DNA from: an uncultured bacterium
Lineage (GTDB): Bacteria > Bacillota_I > Bacilli_A > RFN20 > CAG-826
Assembly: GCA_949299195.1 (NCBI GenBank)
Contig: CASFZN010000020.1
Coordinates: forward strand, 112,903-176,902
Length of the DNA stretch: 64,000 nt
Reading direction: 5' to 3'
In this document: piece after piece, positions 14,001 to 62,122 of the stretch
Layout of the letters: each line of letters starts with the position of its first letter
Numbering within the stretch: the stretch's first letter is position 1
Made by a program: the position numbers and the translations under genes
The notes under the pieces: model-generated
Told to the model about the DNA's origin: nothing
Databases searched by the model: none
What the model saw: only the letters and a program-made list of their open reading frames with translations

Positions 14001-14035
14001 GTGAATAATTTTTTAATTTTAAGCGTTCTTGTATA
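14001..14035 (+). promoter_or_regulatory. shared competence-linked promoter box, copy A
   Basis: TGAATA (14002-14007), 16-bp spacer, CGTTCT (14024-14029) and then TGTATA, preceded by A/T tracts. The same element lies before the C39 membrane protein (39635-39669) and before comEA (62141-62176). The spacing resembles promoters read by ECF-type sigma factors. A start of transcription about 7 nt after CGTTCT would leave the SD intact. Confidence 0.7.
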
Positions 14036-14055: not shown

Positions 14056-14652
14056 ATGATTAGTGATATTAAATTAAATCTTAGACATTATTACTTTAAT
14101 TATTGGTCAAGATGCATTAGAGACTCAATTGAGAATCAAATTGTAAATAGATTTGATTATATTCAAGATGGTGTAGTTAATAAGGGCGATAAATTTTATC
14201 CCTTTAGAGACTATAAAAATCTCTTAGTCTTAAGAGGACAGATAATTGAATATGCTTTTAAGATCTCTAAAAACGGAGAATTGATTTATCAATTTGCAAT
14301 CTGTTTAGATGATTCTTTTGAAGATGATCATGAGGTATCAATTGTTCCAATTGAAACCAAATCTATTAATAAGGATGAAAATAATAATTCATCTAATAAT
14401 TTAATAAGGAAATTTGATTTAGGAGTATTACCTGCAATTAGTAAGGATTTAATTGTGGTAGCTAAAATTGACGAGGTTAAGATATTAGATAAGACATTAA
14501 TTAAAGCGGATAGTAAGTTTTTTGATTTTATATATGGTAAGGTTCCTGAAAACGTTGTTGAAGATATTAATAACAAATATTTAACGTTTGCTGGTTATAA
14601 GTTATTAAAACACGAAAAAGAGAATCTAAATTTACCTATATATGCTTGTTAA
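14056..14652 (+). CDS. unknown protein in the com-box regulon
   Basis: A protein of 198 residues that I do not recognise. The frame is open upstream to a TTG at 14029, but that TTG lies inside the promoter box and AGAGGAGG precedes the ATG at 14056, so 14056 is the start. It has no signal peptide or membrane segment. The N-terminus is basic and aromatic (LRHYYFNYWSRCIRDSIEN), the middle holds an acidic, Asn-rich linker, and it ends in LPIYAC. It is the last + strand gene before the dif site. Its promoter is shared with comEA, so a role in DNA uptake or processing is possible but unproven. Confidence 0.85.
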   Translation: MISDIKLNLRHYYFNYWSRCIRDSIENQIVNRFDYIQDGVVNKGDKFYPFRDYKNLLVLRGQIIEYAFKISKNGELIYQFAICLDDSFEDDHEVSIVPIETKSINKDENNNSSNNLIRKFDLGVLPAISKDLIVVAKIDEVKILDKTLIKADSKFFDFIYGKVPENVVEDINNKYLTFAGYKLLKHEKENLNLPIYAC

Positions 14653-29716: not shown

Positions 29717-30371
29717 TTCTTATCACCTTTTCATTTAGTTTTATTTCTTCTATTAAAGATTGATAATCTTTATGATTATTTTTCAAAATTTCGATAATTT
29801 TCATTAATTTTTTATTATTTTCAATAAGTTTATCGATTAATTCTTGATCTCTTTCTTTAAGTAAAATCGGACCATATTTAATTTCAAAATCACTATATTT
29901 TTTATTTCCTTTTTTAAAAGAAATTATTTCATAAAAGATTCCATCTTCTTTTAAGATTATCTCATCTTCAATATAAAAACCCAAATCTATAAAGAATTTT
30001 CGACATTCGCTAATGTTATTATGTGAATCGATTATAATTTGTTTAGTATTTTTAATTTTTGATACATCTTTAAGGATAATTTTTTTAATATTTTCATACC
30101 CCATTCCTGCCAAAACGATTGCATCATAAATGGATGAATCATAATCATTAATTCCATCAGAAAGCATGGTTTTTACGCCTTTTCCCAAAGTGTTTTTCTT
30201 TAAATTTTCATAAGGTCCGGCCTTATTTTCAACACCGCATAAAGAAATATGAGGATATTTTTCTTTCAAAAGTAACAACAAATATCCATGATCACTTCCT
30301 ACATCAAAAACGCCGTTAATATCTTCTTTTATTAATGATGATAAAAGCTTAATTCTACGTGATATCATCAT
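29706..30371 (-). CDS. trmK: tRNA (adenine-22-N1)-methyltransferase
   Basis: SAM-dependent enzyme that methylates A22 of tRNAs. N-terminal Rossmann motif is GVFDVGSDHGYLLLLLKEK, followed by AGMGYENIKKII, and then a C-terminal coiled coil. It starts with two adjacent ATGs; the second (30368) has the better distance to AAGGAG. It overlaps the sigma factor gene by 17 nt. Confidence 0.92.
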   Translation of the reverse strand: MMISRRIKLLSSLIKEDINGVFDVGSDHGYLLLLLKEKYPHISLCGVENKAGPYENLKKNTLGKGVKTMLSDGINDYDSSIYDAIVLAGMGYENIKKIILKDVSKIKNTKQIIIDSHNNISECRKFFIDLGFYIEDEIILKEDGIFYEIISFKKGNKKYSDFEIKYGPILLKERDQELIDKLIENNKKLMKIIEILKNNHKDYQSLIEEIKLNEKVIRNEY

Positions 30372-31473
30372 AATCTCCTTTTAAATATTCTTTAATTTTA
30401 TGTTTGGCATCAAATTCGATTTGACGAACCCTTTCGCGGGTTAAACCATATTTTTTTCCTATTTCTTCAAGAGTATATTGCTTATCTTTTTTAAAGCCGC
30501 TTCTTAACATTAAAATATCTCTTTCTCTTGCACTTAATTTCATTAGCGCTTTTTCCATAGCATCATGAGATTCGTTTTTATTTAAATAATCAACAGGCCC
30601 TTCTTCATCTTGATTTTTAATTGCATCTTCATATTTAATGGTTGAATCTTCATTTAAAACATCATCAAAAGAAATTGTTGAGTTAGGTAAAGATAAAATA
30701 TCTTGAATTTTATCGATATTTACCTCATGATTTAATTTTTCATAAATCTCTTCAACGCTAGGTTCGCGCTTTAATTCTATGACTAATTCATCTTTAGCGT
30801 TAATTACTTTTCTTTGAAGAGTAACAACATTTAAAGGGAGTCTAATGATTCTTTTATTTTCTGAAATTGTTCTTCGAATTGAGTTTTTAATAGCAACTGT
30901 TGCGTAGGTAGAAAATTTAACATCTTTATTAATATCAAAATTTTTTAATGCATTAATAAGACCGAAAAAACCTTCACTAATTAAGTCTCCAATATCAATT
31001 CCAAAATGAGCATATTCTTTAGCGACGCTAATAACTAATCCCATATTGTTATAAATTACTTCTTCTTCGGCGTTTTTATCGCCTTTTTGAGCTTTTTTAA
31101 TTAATTCGAATTGCTCTTCATAGGATAAATTTTTAGTGTATTGAAAGGAAGAATTGCTTTTTGTATACATTCCAAGCATTCTTTCATAACGCTTATTATT
31201 TTCGTAATCTAAAAGATTTAAATACTCTTCTTCATTTAATAAATTATAGTTTTTAAAGATTAAAAAATCTTTTATTGCTTCTTTTTCTTCTTCAGTTAAA
31301 GAAAAATCATTTAAAAAACTCTCAAGTTCTTTTTTGTTAACGCTTTTTTTAGGATCAAATTTAGAGATAAAATTATCAAAACTAATTAAAAAAGATTCGA
31401 TAAAATCTTCGCTTTTACCGAAACTTTTTAAAGATTTAATTAGATTTTTATAGTGGTTTTTACCTCTTTGCAT
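30355..31473 (-). CDS. second sigma-70 family sigma factor
   Basis: A 372-residue sigma factor encoded 20 nt after rpoD. Region 2 is seen in LISEGFFGLINALKNFDIN and KFSTYATVAIKNSIRRTI, region 3 follows IRLPLNVV, and region 4.2 is YTLEEIGKKYGLTRERVRQI. Compared with the housekeeping factor in the same operon, the WW of [12 protein letters not shown] is replaced by VA, and IRIPVHMV becomes IRLPLNVV, so it probably prefers another -10 sequence. About 120 N-terminal residues are unlike RpoD. No SD is visible before the ATG. Confidence 0.9.
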   Translation of the reverse strand: MQRGKNHYKNLIKSLKSFGKSEDFIESFLISFDNFISKFDPKKSVNKKELESFLNDFSLTEEEKEAIKDFLIFKNYNLLNEEEYLNLLDYENNKRYERMLGMYTKSNSSFQYTKNLSYEEQFELIKKAQKGDKNAEEEVIYNNMGLVISVAKEYAHFGIDIGDLISEGFFGLINALKNFDINKDVKFSTYATVAIKNSIRRTISENKRIIRLPLNVVTLQRKVINAKDELVIELKREPSVEEIYEKLNHEVNIDKIQDILSLPNSTISFDDVLNEDSTIKYEDAIKNQDEEGPVDYLNKNESHDAMEKALMKLSARERDILMLRSGFKKDKQYTLEEIGKKYGLTRERVRQIEFDAKHKIKEYLKGDYDDIT

Positions 31474-31492: not shown

Positions 31493-32770
31493 TTATTCAT
31501 CATTTAAATCATCGATGAGTTTAAGCTTATTAGGGTTTTTTAAACGTCTAATAGCTTTAGCTTCAATTTGTCTAATTCTTTCTCTTGTGACTCCAAATTC
31601 CTTACCAACTTCTTCTAAGGTTCTTGGTTTATTATCTTCTAAGCCATAACGTAATTTAATAACTCTTTCTTCTCTTTCACTTAAAGTAGAAAGAACTTTA
31701 TAAAGAGCTTCTCTTTGCATGGATTTAGAAGTAAATTCGGTTGGAGATAAACCGTCTTTATCTTCAACGAAATCTCCTAAATGAGAATCATCTTCCTCAC
31801 CAATTGGAGATTCTAAAGAGACTGGTTCTTGAGCAATTCTTTGAATTTCTCTAATTTTTTCTGGTGGCATTTGTCCGCCCATCGCCTTAGAAATTTCTTC
31901 AGGTGTTGGTTCTCTTCCTAATTCTTGAATAAGTTGTCTTTGATAACGAGTGATTTTATTAATAGTTTCAACCATGTGAACAGGAATTCTAATAGTTCTT
32001 GCTTGGTCGGCAATTGCTCTAGTAATTGCTTGTCTAATCCACCAAGTTGCATAGGTTGAGAATTTAAATCCCTTAGTATAATCAAATTTATCAACAGCCT
32101 TAATTAAACCTAAATTTCCTTCATCGACTAAATCAAGTAAAGGCATACCTCTACCTAAATAATGTTTTGCAATTGAAACGACTAATCTAAGGTTGGAATT
32201 GATAAGTTGATCTTTAGCTTTTTGGTCACCTTGAAGGATTCTAATAGCTAATTCTCTTTCTTCATCAGCTTTTAAAAGTTGGAATCTACCAATGTCTTTT
32301 AAATACAATTTAACACTATCGTTAATTTTTACATCAGTTAATGAATAAGCATCAAAATTGGTAACAGCGTCTAATTCTTCGCTTGATTGACTAAAGTCTT
32401 CATTAAAATCTCCATCCATTAAATCTTCATTAGCTTCCATTTCCATTTCATTTAATGAAGATTCATCAAATTCGATATCATCGATATTTTCATCACTTTC
32501 TAATTTATAACCTAAATTAGCGTAATAATTAAAAATAGCGTCGATTTCGTTTTCATTTAAATCGTATCTTCTAGTTGCTTCAGTAAATTCATATTGAGAA
32601 ATAATCTTAGTATCGGAATTTTCTTCAGCAAATCTTTTTAAAACAGTTTCAAGAGTTTCTATTTCATCTCCCTCTTCTAAATCTTCATCGTTAATTACAC
32701 CTTTTTCTTTTAAGATTTTTTCAACCTTTTTATCAACGATTTGATTTGTTGCTTTAGCGGTTTTTGGCAT
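31493..32770 (-). CDS. rpoD: primary sigma factor RpoD/SigA
   Basis: Housekeeping sigma factor of 425 residues: region 1.1 (residues 1-90), an acidic linker, region 1.2 ([18 protein letters not shown]), region 2 ([37 protein letters not shown]), region 3 and region 4.2 ([20 protein letters not shown]). A strong AAAGGAGG precedes the ATG. It overlaps dnaG by 17 nt in the classic dnaG-rpoD order. Confidence 0.97.
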
Positions 32771-36063: not shown

Positions 36064-36657
36064 TTACAAATTATTTATATTCTTATAAGATTCAAGGTGA
36101 ATATCGAGATTAAATGCAAGAATTTTTGATAATAAATTAAAATATTTTCTAAAGTTATTTTTATCAATATTTTCGTTTAGCATTACATCCTTATTTAATA
36201 ATATAAATTCTTCTTCGTTTCTAGGATCCATTCCTAAAATCTTTAAAATATTGATATAAATAACTAAGCATTCATAAAAATGATTCCTTTCTTTAGAATC
36301 AATATTTTTGATTTCTTTTAATAAAAAATCATATAAACCTGTAAAATCTATTGTTTCTTTATATTCATTTAAGTAACTTAAAAGTTCATTCAAAAAATCG
36401 ATGATTATAAGTTTATTAAAATCATCATAGGTGTTTTTTAAGAAAAAAGTTTGATTAAAGGCACTTAATTTATAATATTTTTGCCCACCCTTATAGATTC
36501 TAAATTCACCACCAGAAAACTTGTTTATATTTTCTTTAATATAAACATTTTTACTAACTTGTACTGATTCGATATTGTTATTAGTCAAAATATTAATGAT
36601 ATTATCGCTTTCTTTATATTTAGAAATCGAAATAATAATTCCATTAATTAATTCCAT
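36064..36657 (-). CDS. recO: DNA repair protein RecO, short form
   Basis: RecO loads RecA on single-stranded DNA with RecR. The N-terminal OB-fold (GIIISISKYKESDNIINIL; FSGGEFRIYKGGQKYYKL) and the helical second domain are recognisable. At 197 residues it is about 50 shorter than usual, and the C-terminal zinc finger is missing. The position after era is typical, and its start adjoins the era stop. Confidence 0.85.
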   Translation of the reverse strand: MELINGIIISISKYKESDNIINILTNNNIESVQVSKNVYIKENINKFSGGEFRIYKGGQKYYKLSAFNQTFFLKNTYDDFNKLIIIDFLNELLSYLNEYKETIDFTGLYDFLLKEIKNIDSKERNHFYECLVIYINILKILGMDPRNEEEFILLNKDVMLNENIDKNNFRKYFNLLSKILAFNLDIHLESYKNINNL

Positions 36658-37526
36658 TATTTATATCCTAGTTTTGCTAAAAAACTGCTAGAATTCTTCC
36701 AATTTTCGACAACCTGAACAAAGAGTTCAAGGTTAATATTATATCCAAGTAAATTCTCGATATCTTTTCTAGATTCAATACCGATTCGTTTGATCATTTG
36801 TCCTTTTTTTCCAATAATTATCCCTTTTTGCGATTCTTTTTCTACGATGATTTTTGCATAGATATTTTTTCCAGTTCTAAAATTAATTTCATCGCATAAA
36901 ACAGCAATGGAATGAGGAACTTCTTCATCTAATAATTTTAAGGTTTTTTCTCTAATAATCTCTTGAACCATGAAGGTAAAATTACGATTAGTAATCGTAT
37001 TGACGTCATAATATTGAGGACCTTCAGGAAGATATTTTTTAATCATTAAAATCAAATAATCGATATTAAAATCTTCTAAAGCTGAAATTTCGATAAACTC
37101 AGATTCAGGAAATAATTCTTTATATTTTTCTTTAAGTTCATTAATTAATAAAACATTAGTTAAATCAATTTTATTAAAAACTACGATGACTGGAGTTTTA
37201 AATTTGATGCTTTTAGGGATAAATAAGTCGTTTTCGTTAAATTTTTTACTAGCATCAACAATTAATAATACTAAATCATTATTTTTAGCATTATAAAAAG
37301 CAATTTTATCCATCTCACGGTCTAAATCTGTTTTAGGTTTATGAATTCCTGGAGTGTCGACAAAAATAATTTGAGAATCTTCATCGTTATAAATCCCTTG
37401 AATTGAATCTCTAGTTGTTTGAGATTTTGGGGAAATAATCGATATTTTCTTCCCAATGATTGAGTTTAATAATGTTGACTTTCCAACATTTGGTTTTCCT
37501 AAAATAGTTACAAATCCGCTTTTCAT
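36657..37526 (-). CDS. era: GTPase Era
   Basis: Ribosome-assembly GTPase with KH domain. G1 GKPNVGKSTLLN, G2 SQTTRDSIQG, G3 DTPGIHKP, G4 FNKIDL; the C-terminal KH domain has IIVEKESQKGIIIGKKGQMIK. The 289 residues are normal. It starts directly after the cdd stop codon. Confidence 0.97.
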   Translation of the reverse strand: MKSGFVTILGKPNVGKSTLLNSIIGKKISIISPKSQTTRDSIQGIYNDEDSQIIFVDTPGIHKPKTDLDREMDKIAFYNAKNNDLVLLIVDASKKFNENDLFIPKSIKFKTPVIVVFNKIDLTNVLLINELKEKYKELFPESEFIEISALEDFNIDYLILMIKKYLPEGPQYYDVNTITNRNFTFMVQEIIREKTLKLLDEEVPHSIAVLCDEINFRTGKNIYAKIIVEKESQKGIIIGKKGQMIKRIGIESRKDIENLLGYNINLELFVQVVENWKNSSSFLAKLGYK

Positions 37527-37937
37527 TTAATCTAAGTCACTTCCATCAAAACAATAAGGTATTAAATCATACTTACTCATATGTAACACCTCTTTTTTTA
37601 AATTTGAAAGATAAATTCTAACATCTTTATTAGTTAATTCAAAAATTACTTGTCGACAAGCGCCACAAGGAGAGACTGGTTTTTCAGTATCTGCAACAAT
37701 AGCAAGTTCCATAATATCGTCTTTATTAACTCCATTACTTATAGCGTTAAATAGACAAGTTCTTTCAGCACACAAAGTTAAACCAAATGAAGCGTTTTCA
37801 ATATTGGTACCATGAAAAATACGACCATCTTTGGTTCTTAAAGCAGCTCCAACTGCAAAATGAGAATAAACACAATAAGAATTTTCTCTCGCTTTAATTG
37901 CTTCTTCTACTAATGAAATTACTTCGTTTGATTCCAT
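37527..37937 (-). CDS. cdd: cytidine deaminase
   Basis: Zinc enzyme that turns (deoxy)cytidine into (deoxy)uridine. Active site GTNIENASFGLTLCAERT and PCGACRQV carry the zinc cysteines and the catalytic Glu. The 136 residues fit the tetrameric form. It overlaps ybeY by 19 nt. It feeds the same salvage route as deoB and deoC. Confidence 0.95.
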   Translation of the reverse strand: MESNEVISLVEEAIKARENSYCVYSHFAVGAALRTKDGRIFHGTNIENASFGLTLCAERTCLFNAISNGVNKDDIMELAIVADTEKPVSPCGACRQVIFELTNKDVRIYLSNLKKEVLHMSKYDLIPYCFDGSDLD

Positions 37938-38392
37938 AAATCTTCTCCATCAAAAATCTTATCTTGTAAACTAAACATGATTTCTTCATCTTCTTTTTTC
38001 ATATGATCATAACCTAAAAGATGAAGTAAGCCATGTACAAAAAGAAAACAAATTTCTCTTTCAATTGAGTTTCCGTATTCCTTACGGTTTTTATCCGCTA
38101 CTTCAAAACAAATATAAATCTCTCCTAAAAAAGACTGATATTTATCGAAGAATTTTAAATTTGGATCCTCTTCATGAACCTCTTCTAAAGAAATGACATC
38201 AGTTGGTCGATCAATTCCTCTAAAAGCGAGATTAAGTTTATGGATAGTTTCAATATCAACAAAAATAACGTTTACATCGCTATCTTCTTTTTCGATATTT
38301 AAAACTTTAAAAGTCTTTTCCCCTAACTTTTTAAATAACTCATCATAAGGACTTGTTTTTCCGCCAACTAAGCTTTCAACCGTGATATTCAT
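37919..38392 (-). CDS. ybeY: endoribonuclease YbeY
   Basis: rRNA maturation and quality-control RNase with the zinc motif FVHGLLHLLGYDHMKKEDE. The 157 residues are normal. In many Bacilli phoH lies upstream; here a C39-peptidase gene takes that place. An extended -10 box lies 9 nt before the ATG and there is no SD. Confidence 0.94.
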   Translation of the reverse strand: MNITVESLVGGKTSPYDELFKKLGEKTFKVLNIEKEDSDVNVIFVDIETIHKLNLAFRGIDRPTDVISLEEVHEEDPNLKFFDKYQSFLGEIYICFEVADKNRKEYGNSIEREICFLFVHGLLHLLGYDHMKKEDEEIMFSLQDKIFDGEDLWNQTK

Positions 38393-38421: not shown

Positions 38422-39618
38422 TTAAAAGTTAGTAGAATGGAAGAAATATAAGGCTTTATAGTACTTATAATCTTCATAGGAAGAATCTGAATTAAATAAT
38501 TTATCCAAATTATCGCCAATATAATAAAATGCAATGGTATAAAATAAGACAAAATTAAGATAAATTTCATTTTCAAACGAAGCTAAGACTAAAGATAAAA
38601 CGATTGAAATAAAAATATAAATATACTTTTTAATATTAATTAAGGATGCAACTTTATAAGTTCCATTATTTAATTCATCAAAATATTCTTCTAACTTTAT
38701 ATCATCTTTATCAACTTTAAAAAGTTGATGTTCCAAGCTACATAATTCATTTTTTTGATAGAGTAAATATCTATTTGTTAATAGATTAATAATGATGATA
38801 ATAATTAAAAATCCACCGATAGCAATCAAATTTAAATAGTTGTTAATTCCTAAAATAAAAGCGCTGAAAATAATGAATATTATCGAATTAATTATATTCA
38901 TTGGAAAAGTTATAGCTAAAGTTTTAAGTTTATTAATCTTATAGTATTTATCTTTTAAAAATCCATGACTTCGATATATCTTTTTAAATAGATTTTTATC
39001 GATTCTTTTCATAATATACATCAATACATTTTGAAAAATGATTAAGGATATGATAAAGCCTGAAAATAAAAGAATTGGAATGACAAATGATACTTCTTCA
39101 TTTATATAAAATAATCCTAATATAAATAATGAAGATGTTATAGGTTGTAAGAAAATCAATAGTAAAGACTGAGAAATAGATAAAATTCTTTTGTTTTTAA
39201 ATTTAAAATTTGATCCTCTTACTTCTGTTACTTCCATTATTTCTCCATTAAAAATAGTAATAAAGTCTTTCATTTTTAACTTTATTTTTCCAAGTTGTGG
39301 ATCTAAATAGATAACATACTTTTTTGTTGCTTTAACTAAATATACTAAATGGTAATGATTTTCTATTTTTAAATTAAGCAAAGCTTTACTCTTTTTTAAA
39401 GCATAAACATCTTCTTTTTTAGAGATTCGATAAACGCTTAATTTAACTCCTTCATTATTAGCAATTTGCATAATTTCTTTTAAGTTATATGCAATATCTA
39501 GCTTTTGTTGAGGATAATAAAGAAAATCCTTATTTTTATATACATTAGCTAATAGGATTTTTAATGCTGCAAAAGCGCAGTCTTTTTCGCCGATTTGTTT
39601 TATGTATAACAAGGACAT
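38422..39618 (-). CDS. C39-peptidase membrane protein, exporter-like without ATPase
   Basis: A 398-residue protein. Residues 1-130 are a C39 (double-glycine leader) peptidase domain: Gln8 and catalytic Cys14 in KQIGEKDCAFAALKILLA, His90 in HYHLVYLV and Asp106 in YLDPQLG. Residues 148-370 hold about six membrane segments arranged like an ABC exporter, but no nucleotide-binding domain follows. Peptidase-containing transporters of the ComA/PCAT type normally have one. The promoter box is shared with comEA, which suggests processing or export of a peptide during competence. AAGGAGG precedes the ATG. Confidence 0.85.
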   Translation of the reverse strand: MSLLYIKQIGEKDCAFAALKILLANVYKNKDFLYYPQQKLDIAYNLKEIMQIANNEGVKLSVYRISKKEDVYALKKSKALLNLKIENHYHLVYLVKATKKYVIYLDPQLGKIKLKMKDFITIFNGEIMEVTEVRGSNFKFKNKRILSISQSLLLIFLQPITSSLFILGLFYINEEVSFVIPILLFSGFIISLIIFQNVLMYIMKRIDKNLFKKIYRSHGFLKDKYYKINKLKTLAITFPMNIINSIIFIIFSAFILGINNYLNLIAIGGFLIIIIIINLLTNRYLLYQKNELCSLEHQLFKVDKDDIKLEEYFDELNNGTYKVASLINIKKYIYIFISIVLSLVLASFENEIYLNFVLFYTIAFYYIGDNLDKLFNSDSSYEDYKYYKALYFFHSTNF

Positions 39619-39634: not shown

Positions 39635-39669
39635 TATACAAGAACGCTCTAATTTAAAAAATTATTCAC
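39635..39669 (-). promoter_or_regulatory. shared competence-linked promoter box, copy B
   Basis: On the - strand TGAATA (39668-39663), 16-bp spacer, CGTTCT (39646-39641), TGTATA, then AAGGAGG and the C39 gene. It is nearly identical to copy A over 35 bases and follows long A/T tracts. Confidence 0.75.
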
Positions 39670-59534: not shown

Positions 59535-61559
59535 CTAAAATTCATAAAATTTATATGTAATCGTGCCTTCAAGATCAGTTCTTCTAATTTTAACGTTATA
59601 TTTATTTAAAGTAGCGATTACTTCATCACTTGGATGATTATAAAAATTATTAACTCCACAGCTAATAATCGCTTCTTTTGGTTTTAAAAATTCGATAAAT
59701 TCACTACTTGTTGAAGTTTTAGAACCATGATGTCCTACCTTTAAACAATCTACCTTCAAATCCTTATATTCATTCATAATATTTTTTTCAATATTTATAG
59801 ATGCATCTCCCATAAATAAAAAGTTATAAGAAGATAAAGAAAGATATAAAACTAAAGAATTATCATTTTCATCTAAGGAAAATGAAGAATTATTTAAATT
59901 CCTTATATTAATAGATGAATCATTAAACTCTTTAAAATTATTATAATCATAAATATTATTAATTTTAAAATTAGAGTTTAATGATTCTAGTGCTCCATAA
60001 TGATCAAAATCATAATGGGATATAAATACTGAATCTAATGAATATATTCGATTTTTCTTTAAATAAGGAATTAAAGAATTGGTTGCTAAATCAGTATAGG
60101 TTAATCCTCCCGTATCAATTAAATAAGACTTATTTTTGATTCTTATTAAAGTAGAATCTCCTTGTCCAACATTAATAAATGAAACTAAAACACTAAAGCT
60201 ATTTTCTATAGGTAAAGTATATAGAGATAAAAATAACGAAAAAGTAAGAATATATGGGATAAATCTAGCTTTATTGTTAACCTCAACAAAGTAGAAAAAT
60301 CCATAAAGAATAAAGAAATAAAAACATAACAATAAATCATTAAAATATGGGATATGAATCGTTAAATTTATATCGCTAAATAGATAAATTATATTTTTAA
60401 CTAAGATAAAAATATCATTCACTACTATTGAAGGGACTCCTAAAAATGAAAATAATGAAAATAAATAAAAGATTTTAGTAAGTGGAGTTAATAAAAATAT
60501 GAAAATAGTCGATAAAACATTAAATGAATTATTAAACTTTATTAAAAATGGAAATAAAACAACACTTATAATAAGTTGGTTAATAAACGCTTTTTCAAGT
60601 TTATTAAAATCTTTAATTCTGCCTTTAATTAAAAATAAAAATATCGAAATCATATAAGACATATAAAATCCTGCTTGAAAGATAATTCGAGGATTAATAG
60701 CTATAAAAAACAAACCTAAAATCGCTAAACTATCGAGCTTTTTAAACTTATAATCTAGATAAAATTTATTAATAAAATTAAAGATATAAAAAATTAATGC
60801 TCTAAAAATTGAAAACTTATTAATTGTTATAATTAAAAGTGGAGAATATGTAATTAAAGCTAAAATATGGGATGTTTTTTCATTAAATTTAAGGAAAAAT
60901 AATCTTTTTAATCCATATAAAGAAAAATTAATATACATTCCAGTAATCGAAAAAAGATTAATAATCTGTAAATCTTTTAAAATAATCGTTGATTCGTTTG
61001 AATAATCAATAGTTGAAAATAAAATTCCTCCAATTAAATTTTTAACTACTTCATCTTCAAAATTAGTTAAAAATCTCTCCTTTAAAAAATAATTATTTAA
61101 AGGGAAATTAAAGATATATTCAACACTTTTCGCATCTATTTCATAATCTATTCCTTTAGAAAATAAATATTCATTAAAATCAAAGCTTGATTCAAGAGTA
61201 ACAAAATTAATTTTTGTCTTTATTCCCTCTATTTTTATTATGTCTAAAAAATCAAATGTCGATTCTTTATCAACTCTTACATATATTTTTTCTAATCCAT
61301 TAAAAGCAACAATATAGCTCTTTTTTCTTTCGATTATTAAAAAATAAGGAGATGAAAGCGAGACACTATCTTTAATTAGACATAATAAAATAGTAAGGAT
61401 AAAGGAAAAAAGAATAACAGCTAAAACTTTTTTATTATTTTTAAGATGAACTAAGATTAAATAAATATCAAAAACTAGGATAACTAAGCCTAAAATGTAT
61501 CTTTCATAATAAATTAAACTAGCTAATATGGAGCTTAAAAAAATACAAAATAGGCTCAT
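59535..61559 (-). CDS. comEC: competence protein ComEC
   Basis: Membrane channel for uptake of single-stranded DNA. The N-terminal half has several membrane segments and an OB-like extracellular region. The competence domain starts near GGILFSTIDYSNESTIILKD and FSITGMYINFSLYG, followed by many membrane helices. The C-terminal third is a metallo-beta-lactamase-like domain (SFINVGQGDSTLIRIKNKSY, ISHYDFDHYGALE, KVGHHGSKTSTS). The 674 residues are near normal. It starts 5 nt after comEA. Confidence 0.94.
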   Translation of the reverse strand: MSLFCIFLSSILASLIYYERYILGLVILVFDIYLILVHLKNNKKVLAVILFSFILTILLCLIKDSVSLSSPYFLIIERKKSYIVAFNGLEKIYVRVDKESTFDFLDIIKIEGIKTKINFVTLESSFDFNEYLFSKGIDYEIDAKSVEYIFNFPLNNYFLKERFLTNFEDEVVKNLIGGILFSTIDYSNESTIILKDLQIINLFSITGMYINFSLYGLKRLFFLKFNEKTSHILALITYSPLLIITINKFSIFRALIFYIFNFINKFYLDYKFKKLDSLAILGLFFIAINPRIIFQAGFYMSYMISIFLFLIKGRIKDFNKLEKAFINQLIISVVLFPFLIKFNNSFNVLSTIFIFLLTPLTKIFYLFSLFSFLGVPSIVVNDIFILVKNIIYLFSDINLTIHIPYFNDLLLCFYFFILYGFFYFVEVNNKARFIPYILTFSLFLSLYTLPIENSFSVLVSFINVGQGDSTLIRIKNKSYLIDTGGLTYTDLATNSLIPYLKKNRIYSLDSVFISHYDFDHYGALESLNSNFKINNIYDYNNFKEFNDSSINIRNLNNSSFSLDENDNSLVLYLSLSSYNFLFMGDASINIEKNIMNEYKDLKVDCLKVGHHGSKTSTSSEFIEFLKPKEAIISCGVNNFYNHPSDEVIATLNKYNVKIRRTDLEGTITYKFYEF

Positions 61560-61564
61560 AAAAG

Positions 61565-62122
61565 TTAATCGCTTAAGCAGATGTTATTTTTAATTTTTGA
61601 AAAGATAGAATTTCCGATTCCTTTAACATCCATAATGTCTTCTAATGTTTCAAATCGTCCATTTTCTTCACGATGTTGAACTATTGAAGAGGACATTACT
61701 TCACCAATTCCATCCAAAGAATCGAGTTCTTCTTCATCTGCATCGTTAATATTTACTTTTTCGATTGGATTATTCCCACAAACATCATCTACTTCATATA
61801 ATGGCGCAATATAATATGAGGTAGAATCTTCAACAATTGCTTCAAAAAAGTAACATTTTTCATCCGCATTTGAAGTAACTCCTCCAGCGGCTTCAATTAA
61901 ATCTGCCATTGAAGAACCTAAAGCCAGGGTGTAATTCCCAGGTCGAACAACTTCACCGCTTACCCCAACCGAAATATTATCGTCATCAACAATATCAATC
62001 GAACTATCACCACTTCCTCCGTTATTAGAGTTTCCTTGAAGATTTGGATCGATTGCTTTAAGGACAATAATTCCAATTATAGTAACAATGAGCGTTCCAA
62101 TAATTACTTTTGTTAAGACCAT
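61565..62122 (-). CDS. comEA: competence protein ComEA
   Basis: DNA receptor of the uptake machinery. An N-terminal membrane anchor (VIIGTLIVTIIGIIVLKA), a flexible Gly/Ser/Asp linker, an SLBB domain (GVSGEVVRPGNYTLALGSSM) and two C-terminal helix-hairpin-helix motifs (VNINDADEEELDSLDGIGEV, then IMDVKGIGNSIFSKI). AAAGGAGG precedes the ATG. Its promoter box is shared with two other genes in the window. Confidence 0.95.
   Translation of the reverse strand: MVLTKVIIGTLIVTIIGIIVLKAIDPNLQGNSNNGGSGDSSIDIVDDDNISVGVSGEVVRPGNYTLALGSSMADLIEAAGGVTSNADEKCYFFEAIVEDSTSYYIAPLYEVDDVCGNNPIEKVNINDADEEELDSLDGIGEVMSSSIVQHREENGRFETLEDIMDVKGIGNSIFSKIKNNICLSD

What the first reader, a model, noticed from the sequence alone, without database searches (positions are those of the whole stretch)
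38422..39618. C39 peptidase fused to exporter-like membrane domain, no ATPase, under the competence promoter
The catalytic set Gln8, Cys14, His90 and Asp106 is intact, and six membrane segments follow, but the protein ends where the nucleotide-binding domain of ComA/PCAT exporters would begin. The shared promoter with comEA suggests that it processes a double-glycine leader substrate during competence: a pheromone, a bacteriocin for fratricide, or a pilin-like protein.
Basis: partly seen in the sequence, partly recalled or inferred. Interest (0 to 1): 0.75.

Follow-up and report, generated by a model that had tools for sequence, protein, structure and literature searches.

The report
Peptide-trimming protease in a competence regulon
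The protein is a membrane-bound cutting enzyme that looks like a peptide exporter without its motor; it is probably switched on with the DNA-uptake genes and probably trims one small membrane peptide that is conserved across a whole order of uncultured gut bacteria and has no known function.

Summary
ORF 38422-39618(-) is a C39 peptidase plus a six-helix exporter-type membrane domain with no nucleotide-binding domain. Gln8, Cys14, His90 and Asp106 are invariant in 29 homologues. The AlphaFold model (pLDDT 88.7) matches the peptide exporter PCAT1. Its promoter box is shared with comEA and, genome-wide, with comFA, dprA, recA, ssb and a Tad-like pilus operon (15 sites, 0 in the control). The same box precedes a 60-aa gene 10 kb outside the window: a double-glycine-type leader, then a constant ~43-aa membrane peptide ending LPGG(Y/F/W)xFxW. 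This family was found in 39 of 41 genomes across eight families of the order and is the likely substrate. The membrane domain is dispensable: at the same locus one family keeps C39 plus one helix, another C39 alone. So this is probably a leader protease derived from an exporter, not an exporter awaiting its ATPase. The role of the mature peptide is unresolved: a structural membrane component is slightly favoured over fratricin or pheromone. It is unlikely to be simply the Tad pilin, because families without a secretion ATPase keep the pair and the Tad operon has its own pilin-like gene. I found no paper describing this pair.

The parts
38422..39618 (-). NBD-less PCAT-like protein: C39 peptidase + six-helix ABC-exporter-type membrane domain (398 aa)
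39226..39606 (-). C39 peptidase domain (residues 5-131) with Q8, C14, H90, D106
38494..39177 (-). membrane domain (residues 148-375), fold of the PCAT1 transmembrane domain; no nucleotide-binding domain follows
39635..39667 (-). competence box GAATAATTTTTTAAATTAGAGCGTTCTTGTATA upstream of the C39 gene
62141..62174 (-). same box upstream of comEA
61565..62122 (-). comEA
   Evidence: ORF with C-terminal helix-hairpin-helix motif, read from the sequence
59535..61559 (-). comEC (Pfam Competence E 3.0e-12)
14003..14035 (+). third copy of the box in the window
14056..14652 (+). 198-aa protein of unknown family under that box
36064..38392 (-). recO-era-cdd-ybeY cluster immediately downstream; the C39 orthologue lies beside ybeY/cdd/era in most related families examined

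Best explanation
The gene encodes a leader peptidase that evolved from a peptidase-containing ABC exporter (PCAT) by losing the ATPase. In the competence regulon its C39 domain, on the cytosolic face, cuts the 17-residue double-glycine-type leader (MNKIMLTEEELVAIKPG) from a 60-residue precursor encoded 10 kb outside the window (G000:C20:102814-102993). This leaves a ~43-residue peptide with one membrane helix and a conserved LPGG(Y/F/W)xFxW tail. The membrane domain would hold the protease at the membrane and perhaps hand the cut peptide to the bilayer; it is not an energised exporter. I think it slightly most likely that the mature peptide is a structural membrane part of the competence (DNA-uptake) state rather than a diffusible toxin or signal. 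Shown computationally: domain architecture, catalytic residues, shared box, peptide family and its leader, co-occurrence, loss of the membrane domain in orthologues. Inferred: that C39 cuts this peptide, the topology, and the function of the product.
For: Catalytic residues are invariant in 29 homologues, and the PCAT1 fold is retained without the NBD. C39 and the peptide share the box with comEA, comFA, dprA, recA and ssb. In 22 genus members their upstream regions resemble each other more within than between genomes (permutation p 5e-5). Leader positions match the known C39 rule of hydrophobic -4, -7 and -12 (PMC7018657): L-12 in 32/38, E-8 in 33/38, L/M-7 in 26/38, small residue G/A at -1 in 37/38. 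NCBIfam's class IIb bacteriocin (GG-leader) model hits 7 of 29 members, one above its cut-off. The peptide occurs in 39/41 genomes and C39 in 51/59. The membrane domain is lost stepwise: family f2 167-171 aa with one helix, f4 120-131 aa with none, yet both keep the peptide.
Against: No cleavage has been shown. In this genome the motif is PG rather than GG. Co-occurrence is weakly informative because both genes are nearly universal: one clean joint absence (G049, 86% complete), while G007's absence is an artefact of masked sequence. In f4 the C39 keeps Cys, His and Asp but the Gln is not seen, so activity there is uncertain. D207, K232 and N259 in the membrane domain are invariant where that domain exists, so it may do more than anchor. 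Other substrates were not sought genome-wide beyond the box.
Confidence: 0.68

Rival explanations
1. The mature peptide is a competence-induced bacteriocin (fratricin), like pneumococcal CibAB, matured by this protease and released by another exporter.
For: The GG leader resembles class IIb bacteriocins (TIGR03949, one member above cut-off). Pneumococcal late-competence genes include the two-peptide bacteriocin cibAB together with comEA, dprA and radC (PMC6560143), and here the peptide precedes radC in several families. A MacB-like ABC pair is in the same regulon.
Against: Single-copy, order-wide and apparently vertically inherited at the valS-radC/rplU locus, with near-constant mature length and an invariant PGG..F tail in 29 members; bacteriocins usually vary. 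No adjacent immunity gene was seen.
Confidence: 0.2
2. The peptide is a signalling pheromone; the active part may be the C-terminal aromatic hexapeptide after the second Gly-Gly (LPGG-YQFSWG).
For: GG-leader peptides processed by C39 exporters include competence pheromones (general knowledge; PMC7018657). The tail (Y/F/W)xFxW varies in detail between lineages.
Against: It is expressed from the same box as effector genes rather than from a separate early promoter. The whole mature region is conserved, not only the tail. No receptor was identified.
Confidence: 0.15
3. The peptide is the pilin of the co-regulated Tad-like pilus and C39 replaces the prepilin peptidase.
For: The regulon contains a secretion-ATPase operon (T2SSE E 1.8e-22; PDB relatives include CpaF and VirB11) with a platform-protein-like fold (EpsF, OutF, PilC). 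The genome has no recognisable prepilin peptidase. The mature peptide is Flp-sized.
Against: The operon ends with its own 61-72 aa pilin-like gene without a GG leader. Families f3 and f4 and most of f5 have no secretion ATPase above cut-off yet keep C39 and the peptide.
Confidence: 0.1
4. It is the membrane half of a PCAT whose ATPase is encoded elsewhere and acts in trans.
For: The exporter membrane fold is retained, with invariant D207, K232 and N259.
Against: Orthologues at the same locus have lost the membrane domain altogether. The box-linked ABC genes seen are MacB-like with their own membrane parts. Stand-alone NBDs were not searched for genome-wide.
Confidence: 0.07

Closest known systems
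PCAT/AMS peptide exporters (PCAT1, ComA, BlpA, LahT)
   Same: N-terminal C39 peptidase with Gln/Cys/His/Asp and the same membrane fold; double-glycine-type substrate.
   Different: No nucleotide-binding domain in any of 29 homologues; relatives lose the membrane domain too; leader ends PG, CG or GG.
Competence-linked GG peptides of pneumococcus (CibAB, BriC)
   Same: Small GG-leader peptides expressed with competence genes (PMC6560143).
FapD and stand-alone C39 proteases
   Same: C39 protease without an ABC ATPase; FapD gives a weak NCBIfam hit (E 5.8e-5).
   Different: Far below the FapD cut-off (22.5 of 330 bits); here a six-helix exporter-type domain is attached and the candidate substrate is a membrane microprotein.
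Competence Tad/Flp pilus of Micrococcus luteus (PMC4322843)
   Same: A Tad-type secretion operon tied to natural transformation.
   Different: Here the C39-peptide pair is an additional element and persists where the Tad operon is absent.

Membership tests
Peptidase C39 family (PF03412) | Profile match over the domain above cut-off | tested here: met
   41.7 bits against cut-off 22, residues 5-131
Peptidase C39 family (PF03412) | Catalytic Gln, Cys, His, Asp conserved | tested here: met
   Q8, C14, H90, D106 invariant in 29 sequences
Peptidase C39 family (PF03412) | Cleaves a double-glycine leader | not testable with these tools
PCAT / AMS exporter | ABC-exporter transmembrane domain after C39 | tested here: met
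   Foldseek to PCAT1, TMq 0.70; profile alignment 5-300
PCAT / AMS exporter | C-terminal nucleotide-binding domain | tested here: not met
   Absent in the protein and in all 29 homologues
Double-glycine leader peptides | Hydrophobic residues at -4, -7, -12 and Gly/Ala at -1 | tested here: met
   L-12 32/38, L/M-7 26/38, I/V/L-4 28/38, G/A-1 37/38
Double-glycine leader peptides | Gly at -2 | tested here: inconclusive
   G 16/38, P 12, C 7, V 2, K 1; this genome has P
Class IIb bacteriocins (TIGR03949) | Score above the curated cut-off | tested here: not met
   The window genome's peptide has no hit; one member passes, 22.3 against 21.5 bits
Tad/Flp pilin | Encoded with, and dependent on, a Tad operon | tested here: not met
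   Present in families without a secretion ATPase; the Tad operon has another pilin-like gene

The most novel reading that the evidence does not exclude
In an order of Bacilli that mostly lacks the ComG pseudopilus, a C39 protease descended from an exporter took over a role like that of prepilin peptidase: it matures a tiny, order-conserved membrane subunit of the DNA-uptake apparatus that works with ComEA/ComEC, with or without a Tad-like pilus.
Probability: 0.28. Interest if true: 0.85.

Novelty: new variant of a known kind. Interest (0 to 1): 0.62.

Why it matters
It links a motor-less relative of peptide exporters to one specific, order-wide candidate substrate and to the competence state of uncultured gut Bacilli that mostly lack the usual uptake pilus. 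If right, a double-glycine leader here marks a resident membrane microprotein rather than a secreted bacteriocin or pheromone, and annotation pipelines would mislabel both partners. It also shows stepwise reduction of an exporter to a bare protease, and gives a defined gene set for testing how DNA uptake works without ComG.

Tried and rejected
(1) Peptide as major pilin of the Tad-like operon: my first idea once the ATPase operon appeared; weakened when the operon proved to have its own 61-72 aa pilin-like gene and when families with C39 and peptide proved to have no secretion ATPase above cut-off. (2) Joint absence in G007 as co-loss evidence: rejected, the sequence beyond deoC on that contig reads N. 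(3) Half-transporter with a trans ATPase: made unlikely by orthologues without the membrane domain. (4) PHROGs and plasmid searches for the C39 protein: only a weak ABC-transporter hit and no match, respectively. (5) The first pattern search of the box failed because I set the spacer too long. (6) Pfam for the peptides: no convincing family. (7) A peptide-alignment scan with 29 members had no usable stretch; a closer subset worked.

Full report
OBSERVATION. The ORF at 38422-39618 (minus strand) encodes 398 aa. Residues 5-131 match Pfam Peptidase_C39 (E 1.3e-10, above cut-off); it is the only C39 domain found in the 1.17-Mb genome G000. None of the 29 carries an ATP-binding domain. AlphaFold2 on this alignment gives pLDDT 88.7 and pTM 0.80, with six long membrane helices after the peptidase. 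Foldseek's first hits are PCAT1 structures covering both domains (6v9z, E 2.5e-12, TMq 0.70), and a sequence profile of the family aligns to PCAT1 from residue 5 to 300 (E 1.4e-14). The description "PCAT minus the ATPase" therefore holds.

THE PROMOTER AND ITS REGULON. The sequence upstream of the gene and of comEA shares GAATAATTTT-(10 or 11 bases)-GCGTTCTTGTATA. A third copy lies in the window at 14003-14035, before a 198-aa ORF of no known family. In the whole genome there are 8 exact sites and none for the reversed control; with up to three mismatches, 15 against none. Reading downstream of the sites, they precede comEA-comEC, comFA-comFC, dprA, recA, rpsF-ssb, this C39 gene, a MacB-like ABC pair, two AlbA/Schlafen-like genes, the 198-aa ORF, an operon with a secretion ATPase, and a 60-aa ORF upstream of rplU. 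Four sites lie in a repeated intergenic element without an obvious ORF. Gene names here are my reading of the translations; comEC, the ATPase and the AlbA domain of the 152-aa gene were also checked with Pfam. I call the box a competence box by this association; no expression data exist.

THE SUBSTRATE CANDIDATE. The 60-aa ORF (G000:C20:102814-102993, about 10 kb before the window starts) reads MNKIMLTEEELVAIKPG-DAITLGAVLAIMAIAILAIAVYKLFTSNEAIIKLPGGYQFSWG. Known C39 substrates are recognised through hydrophobic residues at -4, -7, -12 and -15 and a Gly-Gly/Ala/Ser end (PMC7018657). Over 38 family members, -12 is L in 32, -8 is E in 33, -7 is L or M in 26, -4 is I, V or L in 28, and -1 is G or A in 37; the -2 residue is G in 16, P in 12 and C in 7. 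The mature part is 42-46 aa in most members, usually begins with E or D, has one hydrophobic helix and ends in (L)PGG(Y/F/W)xFxW. The family was found in 39 of 41 genomes searched and in 42 loci of public genomes named as uncultured Bacilli, Erysipelotrichaceae, Tenericutes or Candidatus Alloenteromonas, which may include some of the same genomes. NCBIfam's class IIb bacteriocin model, a GG-leader model, hits 7 of 29 members, one above its cut-off. In the loci inspected the gene usually sits after valS and, in several families, before radC, with rplU nearby. In 22 genus members the upstream regions of C39 and peptide resemble each other more within than between genomes (permutation p 5e-5), as expected for a co-evolving shared promoter; shared base composition may contribute.

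PROTEASE, NOT EXPORTER. C39 domains are found in 51 of 59 relatives. In the families where I read the neighbourhood, the gene usually lies beside ybeY, cdd and era, so these copies look orthologous. The membrane part differs: proteins of about 387-441 aa with several membrane helices in f1, f3, f5 and f8; 167-171 aa with a single C-terminal helix in f2 (G035, G042, G047); 120-131 aa with no predicted helix in f4 (G037, G044, G054). Members of f2 and f4 still encode the peptide with a GG leader. An exporter cannot lose its channel; a leader protease can. The f4 enzymes keep Cys, His and Asp but the Gln is not seen, so their activity is uncertain. The synteny is less clear in G037, G044 and some f8 fragments.

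THE TAD-LIKE OPERON. One box precedes an operon (L085 14092 to about 9400, minus) with a TadA/VirB11-type ATPase (T2SSE E 1.8e-22; PDB relatives include CpaF, VirB11 and an archaeal GspE), two membrane proteins, small membrane-anchored proteins and a 70-aa pilin-like gene. The modelled platform protein has EpsF, OutF and PilC as its top Foldseek hits (probability 0.92-0.99, but E about 0.6-1.3). No ComGB-type T2SSF or prepilin peptidase is detected in this genome. I first took the 60-aa peptide for the pilin of this system, but f3 and f4, most of f5, and G018, G030, G033 and G034 lack a secretion ATPase above cut-off while many of them keep C39 and the peptide, and the operon has its own candidate pilin. 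The peptide may still be a structural part of DNA uptake, since comEC is detected in 39 of 59 genomes, including several without the ATPase.

ALTERNATIVES. In pneumococcus the late-competence set includes cibAB bacteriocins, comEA, dprA and radC, and BriC is a competence-induced GG peptide secreted in part by ComAB (PMC6560143). A fratricin or signal role is therefore well precedented. Against it stand the order-wide single-copy conservation of the whole mature peptide and the absence of a visible immunity or receptor gene beside it. I give a structural membrane role about 0.4, fratricin 0.2, pheromone 0.15, Tad pilin 0.1, and other roles the rest.

LIMITS. No cleavage, topology or expression was tested. 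Co-occurrence has little power because both genes are nearly universal: among 41 genomes searched for both, only G049 lacks both cleanly; G015 (70% complete) lacks C39 only; G007 is masked there. Stand-alone ATPases and other GG substrates were not searched for genome-wide. In literature searches over open-access papers I found no description of this pair.

Noticed in passing
L085 9418-14092 (-), G000:C19: Tad-like pilus operon with TadA/VirB11-type ATPase, platform proteins and a 70-aa pilin-like last gene under the competence box, in a genome without a recognisable ComGB or prepilin peptidase.
   Followed up: partly
L085 9418-9630 (-): Pilin-like protein MGEIKGQILGVVMVLAIFGAV...; the KG-Q start resembles archaeal class III signals although no A24 peptidase is found.
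   Followed up: no
L032, L035, L053, L054 (about 1440-1560): Repeated intergenic element (four copies) carrying the competence box but no obvious ORF; a possible small RNA or mobile repeat, no Rfam match to the element.
   Followed up: partly
L086 1916-6803 (+), G000:C18: Two adjacent MacB-like ABC proteins (684 and 942 aa) with the competence box upstream; possible peptide exporter or efflux partner.
   Followed up: no
window 30355-31473 (-): A second RpoD-like sigma factor gene next to rpoD (31493-32770); a candidate regulator for the box.
   Followed up: no
L085 14207-15337 (-): A 376-aa secreted-type protein resembling the first gene of the Tad-like operon, with a similar box upstream (GTGAATAAAAAATAATTTTAAAACGTTCTTGTATA).
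   Followed up: no
L091 (G032), L092 (G029): Two relatives carry, besides the motor-less C39 protein, a second C39 domain in an open frame of 727-729 aa, the length of a full PCAT.
   Followed up: no
G007:C1 from about 88,000: A long stretch of this relative's genome reads N, which mimics absence of the C39 and peptide genes.
   Followed up: yes
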